Below, in pieces: positions 1,214 to 37,397 of a DNA stretch of 37,551 bases. Each line of letters begins with the position of its first letter. Within the stretch, counting starts at the first letter, position 1. Source of the DNA: Chloroflexota bacterium (GTDB lineage: Bacteria; Chloroflexota; UBA11872; VXOZ01); NCBI GenBank assembly GCA_028874195.1, contig JAPPLM010000027.1:1-37551 (forward strand). Reading direction: 5' to 3'. The notes under the pieces are model-generated. The model was not told the DNA's origin. It worked only from the letters and a program-made list of their open reading frames with translations, and made no database searches. The translations under genes were made by a program, and so were the position numbers.

Positions 1214-1267
1214 GCTGATGGGGTAGGGGCGCTTAGCAAGGCTCATTCGTCGAAGTTGAAAGTGTTG

Positions 1268-1526
1268 AGTAATTCGTTGACAGAATTTGCTGCCGATCCG
1301 ATGTGACAAGCGCGAGAATACGCCTCTTAACCGTCATTCCCGTGAAAACGGGAATCCATCTTCTCCGCGTGCCCTGGACTCCGGCGTTCGCCGGAGTGAC
1401 GGACAAATGGGCGATTTCAAACCTAAAGCAAAGCAATGCAGTCTGGCACCTTCCCAGGCGATTACTATGGTGCCCTTCACTCTTGATCTTGGTGCGATTC
1501 TTTCAACGAATTACCTGAAATTTACA
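1268..1526. mobile_element. MITE-like element, copy 1 (imperfect ends)
   Basis: The left end reads GTAATTCGTTGACAG at 1269-1283. The right end at 1500-1519 is its reverse complement with small changes (TTCAGGTAATTCGTTGAAAG on the minus strand). The same ends bound a second element at 31288-31485. The interior carries the CATTCCCG/CTCCGGC double hairpin at 1332-1403. No transposase is encoded, so it would need mobilisation in trans. The interior differs from that of copy 2, so the shared part is mainly the ends. Confidence 0.55.
1332..1403. repeat. CATTCCCG / CTCCGGC double-hairpin repeat, copy 1
   Basis: Two short hairpins follow each other: ATTCCCG..CGGGAAT, then GGACTCCGGC..GCCGGAGTGACGGA. 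The same two-hairpin order, with the same CCATCTTCTC between them, recurs at 37290-37397, and a lone first hairpin is at 37498-37520. This is an intergenic repeat with no coding content. Confidence 0.7.
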
Positions 1527-1544: not shown

Positions 1545-1572
1545 GTAGGGGCGGTTCGCGAACCGCCCCTAC
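1545..1572. terminator. perfect 28-bp palindrome, probable bidirectional terminator
   Basis: GTAGGGGCGGTTCG is followed directly by its exact reverse complement. On the minus strand the stem is followed by CGCTTTTT, just downstream of the thuA-like stop. On the plus strand it is followed by GTTTTATT. It lies between convergent genes. A related palindrome (AGGGGCACGATA and its complement) is at 18653-18676, so it also belongs to a repeat family. Confidence 0.65.
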
Positions 1573-1617
1573 GTTTTATTAATGGCAAAAGGTACCGGGT
1601 CTGCAACTGCCGAGCGA

Positions 1618-10346: not shown

Positions 10347-10388
10347 GGTATCCGTTCATCCTTCGACAAGCTCAGGACGAACGGTTGT
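10347..10388. repeat. CTTCGACAAGCTCAGG-type palindromic repeat, copy 1
   Basis: GTATCCGTTCATCC, the CTTCGACAAGCTCAGG core and ACGAACGG form an imperfect stem between the convergent ends of the ABC exporter and argC. The same sequence, inverted and with a perfect 10-bp outer stem, is at 23088-23127. Variants occur at 34147-34198 and 34230-34266. It may also act as a terminator for the two convergent genes. Confidence 0.75.
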
Positions 10389-13375: not shown

Positions 13376-14056
13376 TTAACTCTCTCGTTCATACCCATCG
13401 TTCCCATTCGTCACCCGAGCATACGCGCTGCTAAACCGCCAGTCCACGTTGCGCTGGCAGAGGCCGGCCTTCACAGGATTGGCTTCTATGTAGGCAATGG
13501 CTGCGGTGAAATGCCGCTCATTACGGATAAAGCGGTCAAAGTAATCCTGGCTCCAAAATGGCGCGGAGCAGCCGAAACGCTTGACCGCTTGATGGGCCGT
13601 AAATGACTTCCAGCTATGTATGATCGTGGAAACGGCATGCCCGGCTAATGGCGCAAAGAGCACGTGAACGTGTGTCGGCATCACAACCCACGCGTGCAAA
13701 TGGTAGCGCGTGTTGGCGAAATAGAGCAAGGCATCTTCTACCATCGCTGCAAGCTGTGGGTTGCGTAGAGGCGTATCTTTGGTTTCTTGATCAAGGTACG
13801 CTTCAAGCCGGCGGCGCAAGGCGCTCTTTTTTTGCGTTTCGCCAAGATAGTTGAGTTCTTGGTTCCATCTAGCGAGTACAGTTGACGGTAATGTTCCGGC
13901 AAGCCGGAAAGTTACCATCTGCGGGATCGCTCCTCCGTCGAAGTGTGGCAGATAGCCGCGAAAGTGCCAACCGCGTGGCTCAAGGGTGGCAGACGGCAGT
14001 GATGCGGATGCGGGCGGGACGCCCGCGTTCCCAGGCGGCCGCTTCTTTCTTTTCAT
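13376..14056 (-). CDS. REP-associated tyrosine transposase (RAYT, Y1/IS200-like)
   Basis: This is a single-domain Y1 HUH transposase-like protein of about 227 residues. The metal-binding HxH is in MPTHVHVLFAP. The nucleophile region is FWSQDYFDRFIRNERHF, and the family ending YIEANPVKAGLC is intact. RAYTs cut and move, or maintain, REP palindromes and are usually single-copy genes flanked by them, as is the case here. The ATG at 14056 is used, and a TTG at 14062 is also in frame. The first 30 or so codons run through a REP unit (14009-14032, encoding NAGVPPASA), so the real start may be later, nearer the WHFRGYLPHFDGG segment. No IS200 left/right ends were seen. Confidence 0.85.
   Translation of the reverse strand: MKRKKRPPGNAGVPPASASLPSATLEPRGWHFRGYLPHFDGGAIPQMVTFRLAGTLPSTVLARWNQELNYLGETQKKSALRRRLEAYLDQETKDTPLRNPQLAAMVEDALLYFANTRYHLHAWVVMPTHVHVLFAPLAGHAVSTIIHSWKSFTAHQAVKRFGCSAPFWSQDYFDRFIRNERHFTAAIAYIEANPVKAGLCQRNVDWRFSSAYARVTNGNDGYERES
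14009..14032 (-). repeat. REP palindrome, copy 2 (inside RAYT 5' end)
   Basis: TGCGGGCGGGACGCCCGCGT begins this unit, which is the reverse complement of copy 1 apart from three bases. It lies within the annotated 5' end of the RAYT gene. The flanking sequence CCAGGCGGCCGCTTC resembles that after copy 3, so the repeat unit spans about 50 bases. Confidence 0.75.
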
Positions 14057-14076
14057 TCTCAAATCGCTGGTGGAGG

Positions 14077-14100
14077 TGCGGGCGGGACGCCCGCGTTCCC
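14077..14100 (-). repeat. REP palindrome, copy 3
   Basis: This unit is identical to the copy at 14009-14032, in direct orientation 68 bases away. The CCAGGTAGCCGTTTCCTC that follows is a variant of the copy-2 flank. It lies between the RAYT gene and the end of the double hydrolase gene. Confidence 0.75.
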
Positions 14101-14173
14101 AGGTAGCCGTTTCCTCTCTTTTATCTTAATCGCAGGTAGCTCCCACCGGCATCCGGGAGTCCATTCCCAGATA

Positions 14174-18958: not shown

Positions 18959-20236
18959 ATGCTTACACGACGTGCCTTGATAGCGAGCACAGCGGCGCTG
19001 GCGGCCGGGTGTAGCTCTCTTGAATCGGCATTCTCCGTGCCGAACCAGCCTCGAACAATCGATCTGACGTGGATTTCGGAGGCGTATGGAGGATTCCGCG
19101 AACGGGGACTCGGGCCGAATGGTCTTGAAGAAACGCTCAAACATATAGTGGCAGCGCTGGAGGAGGACATCGAGAATCCGAATGGACCTGCAAAGGCACG
19201 CTATACCCTGACATCACGCTTCGTGCGCTCGGAAAATGCGGATCCCCCGCTGCAGAGTATTGATGATGTTATCGCCTGGTACGGAGGCTTGGAGGCCGAC
19301 CTCCTGTCTGTGCCGCCCTTTCTTGCCCAATTGCTAGGGGAGCGAGGCGTGATCTTGTCTTTAGACCAGCTAGTCTCAGCAGATGGGTCCGAGTTCACTG
19401 ACGCCATATACCCCTACCTTCTCGATCACTTTCGGTCCGATGGCGGGCTCTTTGCTCTGCCGGTAGATGCGGGCCCAACGATGATTCACTACAACCCAAG
19501 AGTCTTGTCCCAGGATGACGTGAGCAGGATAAATGAGGGTTGGCACTGGGATGACATGGTGGAAATTGCCGAGAAACTGACCGAACGCGATGAAAACGGA
19601 GAGGTGCAGCGCTGGGGACTGATCACACAGCATCAAGGATACTGGTGGGCGCTGTGGCAGAACGAAGCGGAGCTGGCCGACCCAATTACGAATCAGTGTC
19701 GGCTTCTGGAGCCGGCGGCCATTGAAGCGCTGCAATTTTGCCACGACTTGATACACACGCATCAGGTCTCACCGCCTGTGACGAGTTTCGACGCTTGGAG
19801 CGCCTTCCAGAGCGGGTCTTGGCCGCCGATGTTCTTTTCGTCCGTGCAAGGCAATTGGAGTTCGGATAACCGCTGGGCGGCCCTGCCACGGGGCAAGCAG
19901 CACAGCGTGCCGGTGATTGGAAACATGGGTATCGCCATCACCGATAGGGCCCAGAACACGGAGGCAGCGTTTACGGCGCTCAAGGGTCTGGTTGGTGTCA
20001 TGCAGCGTTTTGTGGAAGTGCCGGCGCAGAAGGAAGCAATCACCCGGCTGGGCGATTTTCGCAAGACTTTGCTTCCCGCTGAGATTGCGGCTTTCCAGCA
20101 CTCGATGGAACACGGACGGGCGATACCCTTTAGCCGAGCCATGTGGACTGCTATGCGCGCGCTAGAGGAGGGCATCGTGCGGGGTGACGACGTTCTTACT
20201 GCGGTGAACGACGCCTGTTCCTCGCTGCAAGCGTAA
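18959..20236 (+). CDS. Tat-type sugar-binding lipoprotein, paralogue 1
   Basis: This 425-residue extracellular solute-binding protein (family 1-like) begins MLTRRALIASTAALAAGC. A twin-arginine motif precedes a short hydrophobic helix and a lipobox with Cys18, so it is predicted to be exported folded and lipid-anchored. The mature part has ADLLSVPPFLAQLLGERGVILSLDQ, the GGLFALPVDAGPTMIHYNP sugar-pocket strand, WHWDDMVEIAEKLT and RWGLITQHQGYWWALWQNEA. It ends in a helix GIVRGDDVLTAVNDACSSL typical of the family. AAAGGGAG precedes the ATG. It is followed at 31 bases by paralogue 2, to which it is clearly related but divergent. No permease or ATPase gene follows. Confidence 0.85.
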   Translation: MLTRRALIASTAALAAGCSSLESAFSVPNQPRTIDLTWISEAYGGFRERGLGPNGLEETLKHIVAALEEDIENPNGPAKARYTLTSRFVRSENADPPLQSIDDVIAWYGGLEADLLSVPPFLAQLLGERGVILSLDQLVSADGSEFTDAIYPYLLDHFRSDGGLFALPVDAGPTMIHYNPRVLSQDDVSRINEGWHWDDMVEIAEKLTERDENGEVQRWGLITQHQGYWWALWQNEAELADPITNQCRLLEPAAIEALQFCHDLIHTHQVSPPVTSFDAWSAFQSGSWPPMFFSSVQGNWSSDNRWAALPRGKQHSVPVIGNMGIAITDRAQNTEAAFTALKGLVGVMQRFVEVPAQKEAITRLGDFRKTLLPAEIAAFQHSMEHGRAIPFSRAMWTAMRALEEGIVRGDDVLTAVNDACSSLQA

Positions 20237-20267
20237 AGCTGACCGCAGATATGAAAGGATCAGTGCC

Positions 20268-21554
20268 ATGCTTACACGACGCGCCTTGCTAGCGAGCACA
20301 GCAGCGCTGGCGGCCGGTTGCGGGCCGCTCAGATCATCTTCGGATCTGCCCAGTGGGCCGGAGGCCGCCGCGCTCACGTGGTACACCTTTTCGTTTAGCG
20401 GCCTATTTGTCCCAAATGGCTCATTTGAACAGCCGCAAGAGAGGCTGCCAAAGATTGTAGCCGCGATGGGGGAGGATGTAGAAAATCCCAACGGCCCCGT
20501 GCGCGGAAATTACTCCTTGTCGCCGCGTGTCATAGGCCGCGACGACTATCCGGATCCGCCGCCCAGGAACCAAGACGAATTTGCGGAGTGGATCGGCGGC
20601 ATCAATACGGACCTCCTGTCTATCAGTCCCAGTATGGCGGAATCCTTGGGGAGGCGGGGCGTGATATTGCCCTTAGAGCGCTTCATCGCCGCTGATGATC
20701 AGGACCTTGCGGATACGTTTTACCCTTATGTGCTCGATCAATTTCGAGGAGAGGGTGGGCTTTTCGCTCTGCCAATAGACGCGGATCCGCTTCTGCTCAA
20801 TTACAACCCGGCTCACTTTGCGGCGCAGGGGATTCCATCGCCGGACGAGAGCTGGGACTGGGACGACCTGATAGCAAACGCGGTAAAGCTGACCCAGCGG
20901 GACGACGACGGGAACGTGACGCGTTGGGGGCTCGTCCCGCATTTTCATGGATTGTGGTGGGCGCTATGGCAGAACGAGGCGGAAGTGCTTGGTCCGGTGA
21001 CTGGGCAGTGCCGGCTGCAAGAGCCGGCCGCCACCGCAGCCCTACAATTCTGCCATGACCTGTTCCACACCCATCGCGTCGCGCCACCGGTGGCCGGGAG
21101 AGAGTTGTGGGATATCTATAGCTTGCCGCCGGATGTATTTCCAGCCATGTTCTTTAGTCAAGTCACTCGGGCGCATAGATACGAGTACCGTTTGGCAGAA
21201 TTGCCCCAGGGCAAAGTGCGCAGCGTGCCGGTCTCTGCCGACATGGGCCTCGCCATTCATGCCCGTTCTGGACAAACCGACGCAGCATATACGGCACTTA
21301 AGGGTCTTTTGCAAACGATGCAACGCTTCGTTGCCGTGCCAGCACAGATAGAGGCCGTCGCGCGGCTGGGAGAGATACGGCCAAGTCTCCTCCCAGAAGA
21401 AGTGGCGGCTATTCAGCGGTCCATGGAGCATGGACGCGCGCTCACGTGGGGCGATGGGGCAGGGCATGCCATGCAGCACGTGGTCGACGGCCTCGCGCGC
21501 GGTGATGAAGTGGCTACCGTGGTGAACGAGGCCTGCGCCATAGTGGAAGAGTAG
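20268..21554 (+). CDS. Tat-type sugar-binding lipoprotein, paralogue 2
   Basis: This 428-residue member of the tandem family has a signal segment MLTRRALLASTAALAAGC, with the lipobox cysteine at 18. Marker segments are TDLLSISPSMAESLGRRGVILPLERFIAADDQDL, YPYVLDQFRGEGGLFALPIDADPLLLNYNP and SVPVSADMGLAIHARSGQTDAAYTALKGLLQTMQRF. It is closely similar to paralogue 3 and less so to paralogue 1. AAAGGAT lies before the ATG. The expected role is capture of a sugar or related solute for an ABC importer encoded elsewhere. Confidence 0.85.
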   Translation: MLTRRALLASTAALAAGCGPLRSSSDLPSGPEAAALTWYTFSFSGLFVPNGSFEQPQERLPKIVAAMGEDVENPNGPVRGNYSLSPRVIGRDDYPDPPPRNQDEFAEWIGGINTDLLSISPSMAESLGRRGVILPLERFIAADDQDLADTFYPYVLDQFRGEGGLFALPIDADPLLLNYNPAHFAAQGIPSPDESWDWDDLIANAVKLTQRDDDGNVTRWGLVPHFHGLWWALWQNEAEVLGPVTGQCRLQEPAATAALQFCHDLFHTHRVAPPVAGRELWDIYSLPPDVFPAMFFSQVTRAHRYEYRLAELPQGKVRSVPVSADMGLAIHARSGQTDAAYTALKGLLQTMQRFVAVPAQIEAVARLGEIRPSLLPEEVAAIQRSMEHGRALTWGDGAGHAMQHVVDGLARGDEVATVVNEACAIVEE

Positions 21555-21598
21555 CGGTACCAGACAGGCCACGATCACGCAAGCGGGAGGCAAATTCT

Positions 21599-21619
21599 CC
21601 CTCTCCCGCTGGGAGAGGG
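21599..21619. repeat. CCCTCTCCC/GGGAGAGGG hairpin repeat
   Basis: A perfect 9-bp stem with loop GCT, followed by TTGGGGTGAGG, lies between paralogues 2 and 3. Sequences of this type are widespread intergenic repeats in bacteria. It may attenuate read-through from paralogue 2 into paralogue 3. Confidence 0.6.
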
Positions 21620-21768
21620 TTGGGGTGAGGATGAACGTCCGTTGCGATGGTGTTAGGAAACAAGGCCATGCGTGTGCGCGGTCGTTTCTCTCACGTAACG
21701 GAACATCTAGGACGAAATTCGCATCCCGTTGTTTGAAGACCAAAGACGGCACCGAAAGGAGCAGTGCT

Positions 21769-23058
21769 ATGCTTACACGACGCGCCTTGCTAGCGAGCAC
21801 AGCAGCGCTGGCGGCCGGCTGCGGGCCGTTCAGGTCTTCATCAGATCTGCCCAGCCAACCGGAGGTGGCCGCGCTCATATGGCGTACGTTTTCGTTTAGC
21901 GGTCTTTACTACCAGCCAAGCTTGACCTTCGAAGAGCCGCAAGAGAAATTGCTGAGAATTGTTGCCACGCTGGAGGAAGACGTAGACAACCCCAACGGTC
22001 CTGCAACCGGTCGTTACACGCTAGCGCCCGGGCTCATCGGCCAAGGAGACTATCCTGACCCTCCGCCCAAGGACGACGATGAGTTTGCCGAATGGATCGA
22101 CAGCATCGAAACTGACCTCTTGTCTATCAGTCCCGATATGGCGGAAACCCTAGGGAAGCGGGGCGTCATACTGCCGTTGGAGCGGTTCATCGCAGCCGAC
22201 GACCAGGACCTCACGGAGACGTTCTACCCCTATGTGCTCGATCAATTTCGCGGTGAAGGCGGTCTCTATGCGCTGCCCATAGACGCGAATCCGCTGCTAC
22301 TCTACTACGACCCCGCCTATCTCAGACTTCGAGGTGTTTCTCCACCAGACGAAACGTGGACCTGGGACGACCTAGCAGCCAATGCGCTGGTACTGACCAG
22401 GCGCGACGAGGAAGGGCAGGTGACGCGGTGGGGTCTCATGCCCCACTTTCGCGGGCTCTGGTGGGCGCTGTGGCAGAACGGGGCAGAGGTGAATGACCCG
22501 GTGACCGGCCGGTGCCGTTTGCAGGACCCGGCCGCCACGGAAGCCCTGCAATTCTTTCACGACCTGCTGCATATCCACCAGGTCGCGCCGCCGGTGGGTG
22601 GGAGAGAGACCTGGGAGTTTTACGGCGGGATGGACGATACGGTGCCGGCGATGTTCATTAGTACAGTCAATCATGAACCAAGGTTTGACTACCGCTTGGC
22701 AGAGCTGCCGCGCGGCAAGGTGCGCAGCGTGCCGGTTTCCGCCCACATGGGTCTTGCCATCCACGCGCGCTCGGGGCAGACCGATGCGGCGTACACGGCT
22801 TTGAAGGGTCTGTTGCAGACGATGCAACGCTTTGTGGGCGTGCCTGCGCAGAGAGAGATGGTAGCGCGGCTGCCAGAGATTTGGCCAACACTGGGGCCCG
22901 CGCAATTGACGGCTCTGCAACAGTCAATGGAATTCGGACGGGCAGCGCCCTGGGACGACCGCGCGTGGCAGGTCATGCAACATATCGTGGACGGCCTCGC
23001 GGGCGGCGATGAAGTGGCGACCGTGGTGAACGATGCGTGCGCAGTGCTGGAGGAATAG
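21769..23058 (+). CDS. Tat-type sugar-binding lipoprotein, paralogue 3
   Basis: The protein has 429 residues from the ATG at 21769. That start has AAAGGAG eight bases upstream and gives the same MLTRRALLASTAALAAGC signal as paralogue 2. Upstream codons in frame back to 21625 lie in the repeat-bearing spacer and are not coding. The mature domain is very close to paralogue 2 (TDLLSISPDMAETLGKRGVILPLERFIAADDQDL, GGLYALPIDANPLLLYYDPAYL, GLAIHARSGQTDAAYTALKG). It probably arose by recent tandem duplication. The function is as for paralogue 2. Differences cluster in loops around the predicted pocket, so ligand range may differ. Confidence 0.85.
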   Translation: MLTRRALLASTAALAAGCGPFRSSSDLPSQPEVAALIWRTFSFSGLYYQPSLTFEEPQEKLLRIVATLEEDVDNPNGPATGRYTLAPGLIGQGDYPDPPPKDDDEFAEWIDSIETDLLSISPDMAETLGKRGVILPLERFIAADDQDLTETFYPYVLDQFRGEGGLYALPIDANPLLLYYDPAYLRLRGVSPPDETWTWDDLAANALVLTRRDEEGQVTRWGLMPHFRGLWWALWQNGAEVNDPVTGRCRLQDPAATEALQFFHDLLHIHQVAPPVGGRETWEFYGGMDDTVPAMFISTVNHEPRFDYRLAELPRGKVRSVPVSAHMGLAIHARSGQTDAAYTALKGLLQTMQRFVGVPAQREMVARLPEIWPTLGPAQLTALQQSMEFGRAAPWDDRAWQVMQHIVDGLAGGDEVATVVNDACAVLEE

Positions 23059-23087: not shown

Positions 23088-23127
23088 TATCCGTTCGGCC
23101 TGAGCTTGTCGAAGGATGAACGGATAC
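23088..23127. repeat. CTTCGACAAGCTCAGG-type palindromic repeat, copy 2
   Basis: GTATCCGTTC at 23088-23097 and GAACGGATAC at 23118-23127 form a perfect 10-bp stem around CCTGAGCTTGTCGAAG. It is the reverse complement of the copy at 10347-10388. It lies after the last binding-protein gene and may end that transcription unit. The rest of the gap to 23275 shows nothing further. Confidence 0.8.
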
Positions 23128-24260: not shown

Positions 24261-24457
24261 TTAGATTCCGCGTCTTTGACGAAGTCAGCGAACCTTGGTT
24301 CGCGTAATCTAAAAATCCCCCGATTCTAGATTCTTCGTCGCTCCGCTCCTCAGAATGACATAGCGAGGAGCTGCCTTAAGCGTTGGTTCGCACGTTGTCA
24401 GCTTATATCTCTATGGTTCTAAGTCCGAACCTACCAATTCCCTACCTGACATCTACA
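24261..24457. repeat. repeat debris including a decayed MITE-like end
   Basis: The gap 24188-24499 has no gene. TTAGATTCCGCG (24261-24272) pairs with CGCGTAATCTAA (24301-24312), with one mismatch. Between the arms lies a hairpin CGAACC/GGTTCG (24289-24302). GATTCTAGATTCTTCGTCGC near 24320 resembles the inner arm of the element at 31288-31485. TACCTGACATCTACA at 24443-24457 is identical to the sequence at that element's right end, so this looks like a degraded third copy. Confidence 0.5.
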
Positions 24458-24499
24458 GGAATGACGTGCAATGTCACAAGATCATATGAGGTGTAACCG

Positions 24500-31258: not shown

Positions 31259-31287
31259 CGGGGTTCACCTTAATGTCATTCCTGTCA

Positions 31288-31485
31288 ATGTCAGGTAATT
31301 CGTTGACAGCTTTTGGTAGGAAGGGCCGCGGATCTAGCGTCGTATTACCACTACACATGTCATTCCGAACGGAGCGTAGCGCAGAGAGGAATCTAGTGCC
31401 AAGCTCTACGCAGTCTGTGGCCCCAGCACACTAGATTCCTCGCTGCGCTCGGAATGACATGGACTGTCAACGAATTACCTGACAT
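31288..31485. mobile_element. MITE-like element, copy 2 (perfect 22-bp terminal inverted repeats)
   Basis: The left end, 31288-31309 (core GTAATTCGTTGACAG), is exactly repeated inverted at 31464-31485. Inside is a second long imperfect inverted repeat. GTCATTCCGAACGGAGCG at 31359-31376, with the following bases to 31398, pairs with CACTAGATTCCTCGCTGCGC and the following bases at 31429-31460. The element is 198 bp, has no open frame of note and lies between pyk and the ThuA/deacetylase-like gene. No clear target-site duplication was found. TACCTGACATCTACA at its right edge recurs at 24443. Confidence 0.7.
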
Positions 31486-31628
31486 CTACAACTGCACTGA
31501 CATGCATGGTTGCGGCTAAGTGGATAGCGCGAAAGCCATTCCCGATGATGATCCGGCGCTACCGTGTAGGCTGTCGCCGTGTGGCTCTCCATACATCAAG
31601 AGACTTCTCCCATACAGTGAGGTAACGC

Positions 31629-37289: not shown

Positions 37290-37397
37290 CGTCATTCCCG
37301 CGCAGGCGGGAATCCATCTTCTCTTTTTTCCCAAAGAGCGGCGACTTGCAGCTATGCTGTGAGCGTCCTGGACTCCGGCTTCAGCCGGAGTGACGGA
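37290..37397. repeat. CATTCCCG / CTCCGGC double-hairpin repeat, copy 2
   Basis: ATTCCCGC/GCGGGAAT (loop GCAG) is followed by CCATCTTCTC, a 40-base spacer and GGACTCCGGC/GCCGGAGTGACGGA. It has the same organisation as 1332-1403 but without the MITE-like ends. The first hairpin could terminate pgi. Confidence 0.7.

What the first reader, a model, noticed from the sequence alone, without database searches (positions are those of the whole stretch)
31288..31485. MITE-like element family with shared 22-bp terminal inverted repeats
Perfect 22-bp inverted ends bound a 198-bp non-coding element. The same ends, slightly diverged, bound a different interior at 1268-1519, and a right-end remnant (TACCTGACATCTACA) lies at 24443. 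Shared ends with different interiors suggest a non-autonomous element family that captures other palindromic repeats.
Basis: seen in the sequence. Interest (0 to 1): 0.6.

Follow-up and report, generated by a model that had tools for sequence, protein, structure and literature searches.

The report
Mobile miniature elements targeting palindromic repeats
The window holds two short, gene-less jumping elements, plus a scrap of a third, that are probably moved by an IS481-type transposase; the family inserts at one position in a common short palindromic repeat (a CGTC-tagged REP) and carries copies of that kind of repeat inside itself.

Summary
The perfect 22-bp inverted ends are real and sit inside 27-bp ends; true bounds are 31283-31490 (208 bp) and 1257-1526 (270 bp). 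(1) High copy: about 79 ends in this genome against 10 for the reversed-pattern control; one congener has 65 at a stricter setting. (2) Empty sites: congeners lack both window elements at the orthologous positions. (3) Partner: a full 1099-bp IS481-like insertion sequence with the same ends is intact in a congener, and in the window's own assembly 16 contig ends break inside such an IS. Related transposases in Dehalococcoidia and other phyla abut the same site. Both MITE subfamilies carry a head-outward REP-like dimer as core, a landing site in which nested IS insertions are seen. Subfamily A also shuffles its modules across this core. IS481 insertion into other REPs is known from Pseudomonas fluorescens; CGTC REPs had been reported to lack any associated transposase. 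New variant of a known kind. Transposition itself is inferred from sequence.

The parts
31283..31490 (+). MITE, subfamily A, 208 bp, with one subterminal module deleted between CTGTCAA direct repeats
   Evidence: single-strand DNA fold z = -11.6
31283..31309 (+). 27-bp terminal inverted repeat, left
31464..31490 (-). 27-bp terminal inverted repeat, right
31356..31461 (.). head-outward REP-like dimer forming the core of the MITE (TGTCATTCCGAACGG...GGAATCTAG / CTAGATTCCTCGCTGCGCTCGGAATGACA)
   Evidence: (I11, I14)
31275..31282 (+). GTCATTCC, head of the target REP next to the left end; the right-hand target copy is no longer recognisable (ACTGC)
1257..1526 (-). MITE, subfamily B, 270 bp, ends 20/27 alike; no clear target duplication
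1332..1401 (.). CGTC-tagged REP heterodimer (CGTCATTCCCGTGAAAACGGGAATCCA / TGGACTCCGGCGTTCGCCGGAGTGACG), core of subfamily B
   Evidence: (D5, D18); REP definition from PMC3733652
24443..24457 (.). 15-bp right-end remnant of a family member (TACCTGACATCTACA)
   Evidence: (D11, I10)
24458..24465 (-). GGAATGAC, REP head abutting the remnant, as at intact copies
37290..37397 (.). stand-alone CGTC REP dimer without MITE ends; the kind of repeat that is the target
   Evidence: (D5, D18)

Best explanation
31283-31490 and 1257-1526 are non-autonomous miniature elements (MITEs) of an IS481-like insertion sequence of about 1.1 kb. The IS transposase (348 aa, DDE type) is inferred to bind the shared 27-bp ends (TGTARRTGTCAGGTAATTCGTTGACAG, TG...CA type) in trans. 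It then inserts IS and MITEs at one position of CGTC/TGTC-tagged REPs, cutting around ATTCC in CGTC-ATTCC-CGC...GCGGGAAT-CCA and duplicating those 5 bp. The MITE core is itself a head-outward REP-like dimer, so every copy that lands supplies two new target heads. Shown by sequence: ends, copy number, absence at orthologous loci, target site, 5-bp duplication, full-length IS with the same ends, IS nested in MITE cores, reassortment of modules. Inferred: that this transposase moves the MITEs, that it recognises the REP, and that copies lacking the duplication arose by recombination or decay.
For: End copies: 79 against control 10 in G000; G002 has 65 at up to 2 mismatches over 20 bases, control 0. 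Seventy complete elements were compared, 68 MITEs and 2 IS. 30/70 have an exact 5-bp duplication (12.4 expected when flanks are re-paired, a strict control because the target is itself specific); none have exact 3, 4, 6, 7 or 8; 11 more have 4 of 5. 52/70 have at least 7/8 of GTCATTCC at a flank, while 0.11% of window positions do. Removing the element and one 5-mer restores REPs such as CGTCATTCCCGCGCACGCGGGAATCCA. That REP has 183 matches in this genome, control 0. A full-length IS lies in G002 (L098:1071-2169), with ends identical to the consensus, PF13683, and NF033577 IS481 at E 1.9e-53. G000 holds a 122-bp right-end fragment of it at 94% identity. Eight contigs of G000 stop just inside an IS left end and eight just inside a right end (six clear, two cut very short); 14 to 15 of the 16 abut ATTCC/GGAAT, and C13, C64 and C73 stop inside MITE cores. 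Relatives 63-71% identical in Dehalococcoidia, Chloroflexota and Deltaproteobacteria MAGs abut the same ATTCC/GGAAT. Window loci are empty in G004, and in G003 for the first.
Against: The intact IS is not present in the window's assembly; its presence there is inferred from contig ends and one fragment. The NF033577 score (181.8) is below its curated cut-off (224). The window copies themselves have no clean duplication. Of 70 copies, 29 lack a duplication of at least 4 of 5: 11 of them have GTCATTCC...GGAATGAC on both sides and 18 have one head or none. The empty sites found in congeners do not contain a REP, so at the two window loci it is not shown that a REP was there first.
Confidence: 0.9

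Rival explanations
1. The elements are intergenic palindromes kept for a host function (terminators, nucleoid-protein sites or structured RNA), not mobile DNA.
For: They are intergenic and fold very stably (z -11.6); one lies downstream of a pyruvate kinase gene.
Against: No Rfam match. Sharply bounded by TG...CA ends shared with a transposase-bearing element, with 5-bp target duplications in the family and absent from orthologous loci.
Confidence: 0.03
2. The palindromic repeats are the mobile units and the shared ends are just another repeat module into which REPs inserted, in the manner of mosaic intergenic elements.
For: CGTC REPs (183) far outnumber MITEs and are common in congeners with very few MITEs. 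REP dimers also stand alone (window 37290-37397).
Against: The unit that duplicates its target is bounded by the 27-bp ends, not by REP edges. All five subfamily B copies have the REP dimer in the same place, with no copy lacking it.
Confidence: 0.05
3. Copies spread mainly by homologous recombination between REPs or MITE cores rather than by transposition.
For: In subfamily A the two commonest left modules are each found with the three commonest right modules (three complete four-gamete sets). 11 of 70 copies lack a duplication and have REP heads on both sides.
Against: Exact 5-bp duplications at 30 sites with unrelated flanks need insertion, not exchange. Recombination may reshuffle interiors but does not explain the spread.
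Confidence: 0.05

Closest known systems
IS481 family insertion sequences (e.g. IS1121/IS1122 of Clavibacter)
   Same: Single-ORF DDE transposase with rve_3/rve domain, TG...CA ends, short inverted repeats; NF033577 is the best family
   Different: Only about 31-32% identical to annotated plasmid members; scores under the NF033577 cut-off; 5-bp ATTCC duplication in CGTC REPs; 41 residues between D2 and E
IS481 element of Pseudomonas fluorescens SBW25 (PMC11708052)
   Same: IS481-family element whose copies all sit at the same position of REP sequences
   Different: Those are the Pseudomonas REPs/REPINs and the duplication is 4 bp; the passages of that paper read here mention no MITEs
CGTC-tagged REPs, including Neisseria dRS3 (PMC3733652)
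   Same: The target has the CGTC head, 8-bp ATTCCCGC stem, short loop and CCA tail described there
   Different: The paper found them in 5 phyla not including Chloroflexi and associated with no transposase; here an IS and its MITEs use them as target and core
Neisseria filamentous prophage Nf with PivNM inserting at dRS3 (PMC4471427, citing Kawai 2005)
   Same: A mobile element using a CGTC-type REP as integration site
   Different: Phage with its own PivNM transposase and a CT duplication
QMITE2 and IS1111 of Coxiella burnetii (PMC10969869)
   Same: An IS inserting into the REP carried by a MITE
   Different: The REP is of GTAG type, and IS1111 is not described there as the parent of QMITE2

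Membership tests
MITE (miniature inverted-repeat transposable element) | short (<500 bp), non-coding, terminal inverted repeats | tested here: met
   208 and 270 bp, no transposase ORF, 25/27 and 20/27 matching ends
MITE (miniature inverted-repeat transposable element) | multicopy with presence/absence at orthologous sites | tested here: met
MITE (miniature inverted-repeat transposable element) | target-site duplication | tested here: met
   5 bp in 30/70 copies exactly, 41/70 with at least 4 of 5 matching; not at the two window copies
MITE (miniature inverted-repeat transposable element) | an autonomous element with the same ends | tested here: met
   L098:1071-2169 in a congener; contig-end evidence in the own genome
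MITE (miniature inverted-repeat transposable element) | mobilised in trans by the partner transposase | not testable with these tools
   needs a transposition assay
IS481 family (for the autonomous partner) | single-ORF DDE transposase matching the IS481 model | tested here: inconclusive
   NF033577 is best by far (E 1.9e-53 against IS3 2.8e-19) but 181.8 bits is below the 224 cut-off; D169, D249, E291
IS481 family (for the autonomous partner) | TGT...ACA ends with short inverted repeats | tested here: met
   TGTAAGTG...CACTTACA; TGT...ACA ends are reported for IS481EU elements
CGTC-tagged REP (for the target and core) | CGTC/TGTC head, 8-9 bp stem starting with AT, 4-5 nt loop, CCA tail | tested here: met
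   restored sites such as CGTCATTCCCGCGCACGCGGGAATCCA; definition. Part of the targets and the subfamily A core have a longer variant stem-loop with CTAG tail and fit only loosely

The most novel reading that the evidence does not exclude
IS481-like transposases of this lineage are the missing mobilising enzymes of CGTC-tagged REPs: by inserting on both sides of REP dimers they package them as MITE cores and seed them through genomes, and lone REP dimers are partly MITE relics.
Probability: 0.07. Interest if true: 0.75.

Novelty: new variant of a known kind. Interest (0 to 1): 0.5.

Why it matters
CGTC-tagged REPs are widespread short palindromes that were reported to have no associated transposase (PMC3733652). 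Here an IS481-like element and its MITEs use them as a precise insertion target, and the MITEs carry REP-like dimers as cores. That would explain how the family can reach high copy in intergenic DNA without breaking genes, gives a self-replenishing supply of landing sites, and offers a testable route by which some REPs could be carried around a genome. It also accounts for many assembly breaks in the window's genome.

Tried and rejected
PF00665 found no transposase in the own genome, presumably because the multicopy IS is broken at contig ends; PF13683 in the genus then found it. Plasmid DNA search gave nothing, Rfam nothing. Wider protein searches across class and phylum samples found no further copy; the genome-contig scan found five relatives. 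The other rve_3 proteins in the genus (G001, G004, G002:C17, G002:C28:796) are 31-42% identical proteins without these ends and were set aside. Solved structures: no sequence match. Literature searches for IS481 MITEs and for MITEs in Chloroflexi gave nothing relevant.

Full report
What was checked. The window is contig C35 of a 3.5-Mb, 81-contig genome (G000), with five congeners G001-G005 in the held set. Organism names are withheld; the nearest named transposase relatives include uncultured Dehalococcoidia and other Chloroflexota MAGs. Alignment of 56 ends in the own genome shows that similarity starts five bases further out, at TGTA, so the end is 27 bp: TGTARRTGTCAGGTAATTCGTTGACAG at one side and often TGTAAGTGTTGA(G/C)TAATTCGTTGACAG at the other. 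The true bounds are 31283-31490 and 1257-1526. No 16-bp inverted pair at that spacing appeared in 200 simulated windows.

Copy number. The 16-base end occurs 79 times in G000 at up to 3 mismatches against 10 for the reversed control. The 20-base end occurs 65 times in G002 and only 4 or 5 times each in G001, G003, G004 and G005, and is nearly absent elsewhere in the class. So this is a genus-level family with large copy differences between species.

Two MITE subfamilies. Pairing of inward-facing ends gives mostly 200-268 bp elements. Single-linkage clustering puts 62 in subfamily A, which includes 31283-31490, and 4 in subfamily B, which includes 1257-1526; a 360-bp fifth B copy aligns well. 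In subfamily A the core is a long head-outward REP-like palindrome, ACATGTCATTCCGAACGGAGCG...GGAATCTAG / CTAGATTCC...CGCTCGGAATGACATG. In subfamily B it is a REP heterodimer, CGTCACTCCGGCG...CCGGAGTCCA / TGGATTCCCG...CGGGAATGACG, in all five copies. Between core and ends lie subterminal modules that differ between copies. In subfamily A the two commonest left modules each occur with the three commonest right modules, so that three four-gamete sets are complete: interiors have been reshuffled, most simply by recombination through the shared core. The window copy of A lost one module between two CTGTCAA repeats.

Target. For each of 70 complete elements (68 MITEs and two IS) the flanks were compared. 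Thirty have an exact 5-bp duplication and eleven more match at four of five; none have an exact duplication of 3, 4, 6, 7 or 8. Re-pairing flanks at random gives 12.4 exact 5-mers, because the target is specific; against this strict control 30 is still well above. In 52 of 70 a flank reads GTCATTCC with at most one mismatch; 0.11% of window positions do. Joining the flanks after removing one 5-mer restores palindromes such as CGTCATTCCCGCGCACGCGGGAATCCA, CGTCATTCCCGCGTGCGCGGGAATCCA and TGTCATTCCGAGCGCAGCGAGGAATCTA. The first type fits the CGTC-tagged REP of Di Nocera et al. (PMC3733652): CGTC head, ATTCCCGC stem, short loop, CCA tail. This REP has 183 matches in G000 and 74 to 138 in the congeners, with none for the control. 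Where the target can be read, insertion is at CGTC|ATTCC.

The autonomous partner. In G002 a 1099-bp element (L098:1071-2169) has both ends of the family and one 348-aa ORF. The protein matches rve_3 and best of all NCBIfam's IS481 model, E 1.9e-53, though under that model's cut-off; D169, D249 and E291 are the presumed catalytic residues. In the window's own genome no complete copy is assembled. Eight contigs stop just inside a left end followed by ATTTGGGAGAATGAGCA, and eight just inside a right end (six of them clearly followed by ATTTTGCAGGGCTTGAA, two cut very short). A 122-bp fragment on C74 is 94% identical to the right end of the G002 IS. This is the pattern of a repeat longer than the assembly could cross. 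Three of the sixteen junctions (C13, C64, C73) lie inside MITE cores, so the IS does use the MITE's own REP heads as targets.

Beyond the genus. Transposases 63-71% identical occur in a Dehalococcoidia chromosome (two copies), a Chloroflexota MAG, a Nitrospirales MAG and a Deltaproteobacteria MAG. Their ends are of the same kind. One Dehalococcoidia copy sits in a CGTC REP with an exact GGAAT duplication and the flanks of the other read the same way; the Chloroflexota and Deltaproteobacteria copies abut GGAAT of a palindrome, and the Nitrospirales copy abuts GGGAT. The target choice therefore seems to follow the transposase lineage.

Empty sites. G004 and G003 have the pyruvate-kinase flank of 31283-31490 and the downstream flank without the element. 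G004 lacks the 1257-1526 element. Neither empty site contains a recognisable REP, so at these two loci it is not shown that a REP was there first, and neither window copy has a clean duplication.

What is inferred. That the transposase moves the MITEs in trans and itself reads the REP; that the copies with GTCATTCC on one side and GGAATGAC on the other (11 of 70) arose by recombination between two elements sitting in the two heads of a REP dimer; and that the MITE cores were once captured REP dimers. The last is plausible but no capture intermediate was seen.

Known and new. REP-targeting is known for IS3, IS110, IS4, IS256 and IS5 families (PMC1525189) and for an IS481 element in P. fluorescens SBW25 with other REPs (PMC11708052). 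A CGTC REP (dRS3) is the integration site of a Neisseria filamentous phage (PMC4471427). A MITE-borne REP as target of an IS is known in Coxiella (PMC10969869). New here, as far as the held literature shows, are CGTC REPs in this group, an IS481 lineage specific for them, and a MITE family whose core is the same kind of repeat as its target. CGTC REPs far outnumber MITEs and are common in congeners with very few MITEs, so this family does not explain the REPs as a whole.

Noticed in passing
window 18959-23058: Three consecutive paralogous ORFs of about 425-477 aa in tandem (61-86% alike in DNA over long stretches); the middle one matches a solute-binding-protein family.
   Followed up: partly
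window 10348-10384 and 23091-23127: A 37-bp inverted pair GTATCCGTTCATCCTTCGACAAGCTCAGGACGAACGG, 97% complementary and 12.7 kb apart; looks like another dispersed palindromic repeat family.
   Followed up: no
window 1548-1576 (approx.): Palindrome GTAGGGGCGGTTCGCGAACCGCCCCTACG next to the second element; it is present at the orthologous place in G004 and, less exactly, G005, so it probably predates the MITE there.
   Followed up: partly
L160, L175, L182, L148, L086/L087 and others: Eleven elements have GTCATTCC on one side and GGAATGAC on the other instead of a direct duplication; one of these appears to be at the same locus in G004 and G005.
   Followed up: partly
window 14000-14124: Two copies of a 57-nt repeat with a GCGGGCGGGACGCCCGCGTTCCCAGG core, 68 bases apart start to start.
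   Followed up: no
G001:C5:55523 (L067): A 169-bp left-end fragment of the IS, 93% identical to the G002 copy, in a genome with few family members.
   Followed up: no
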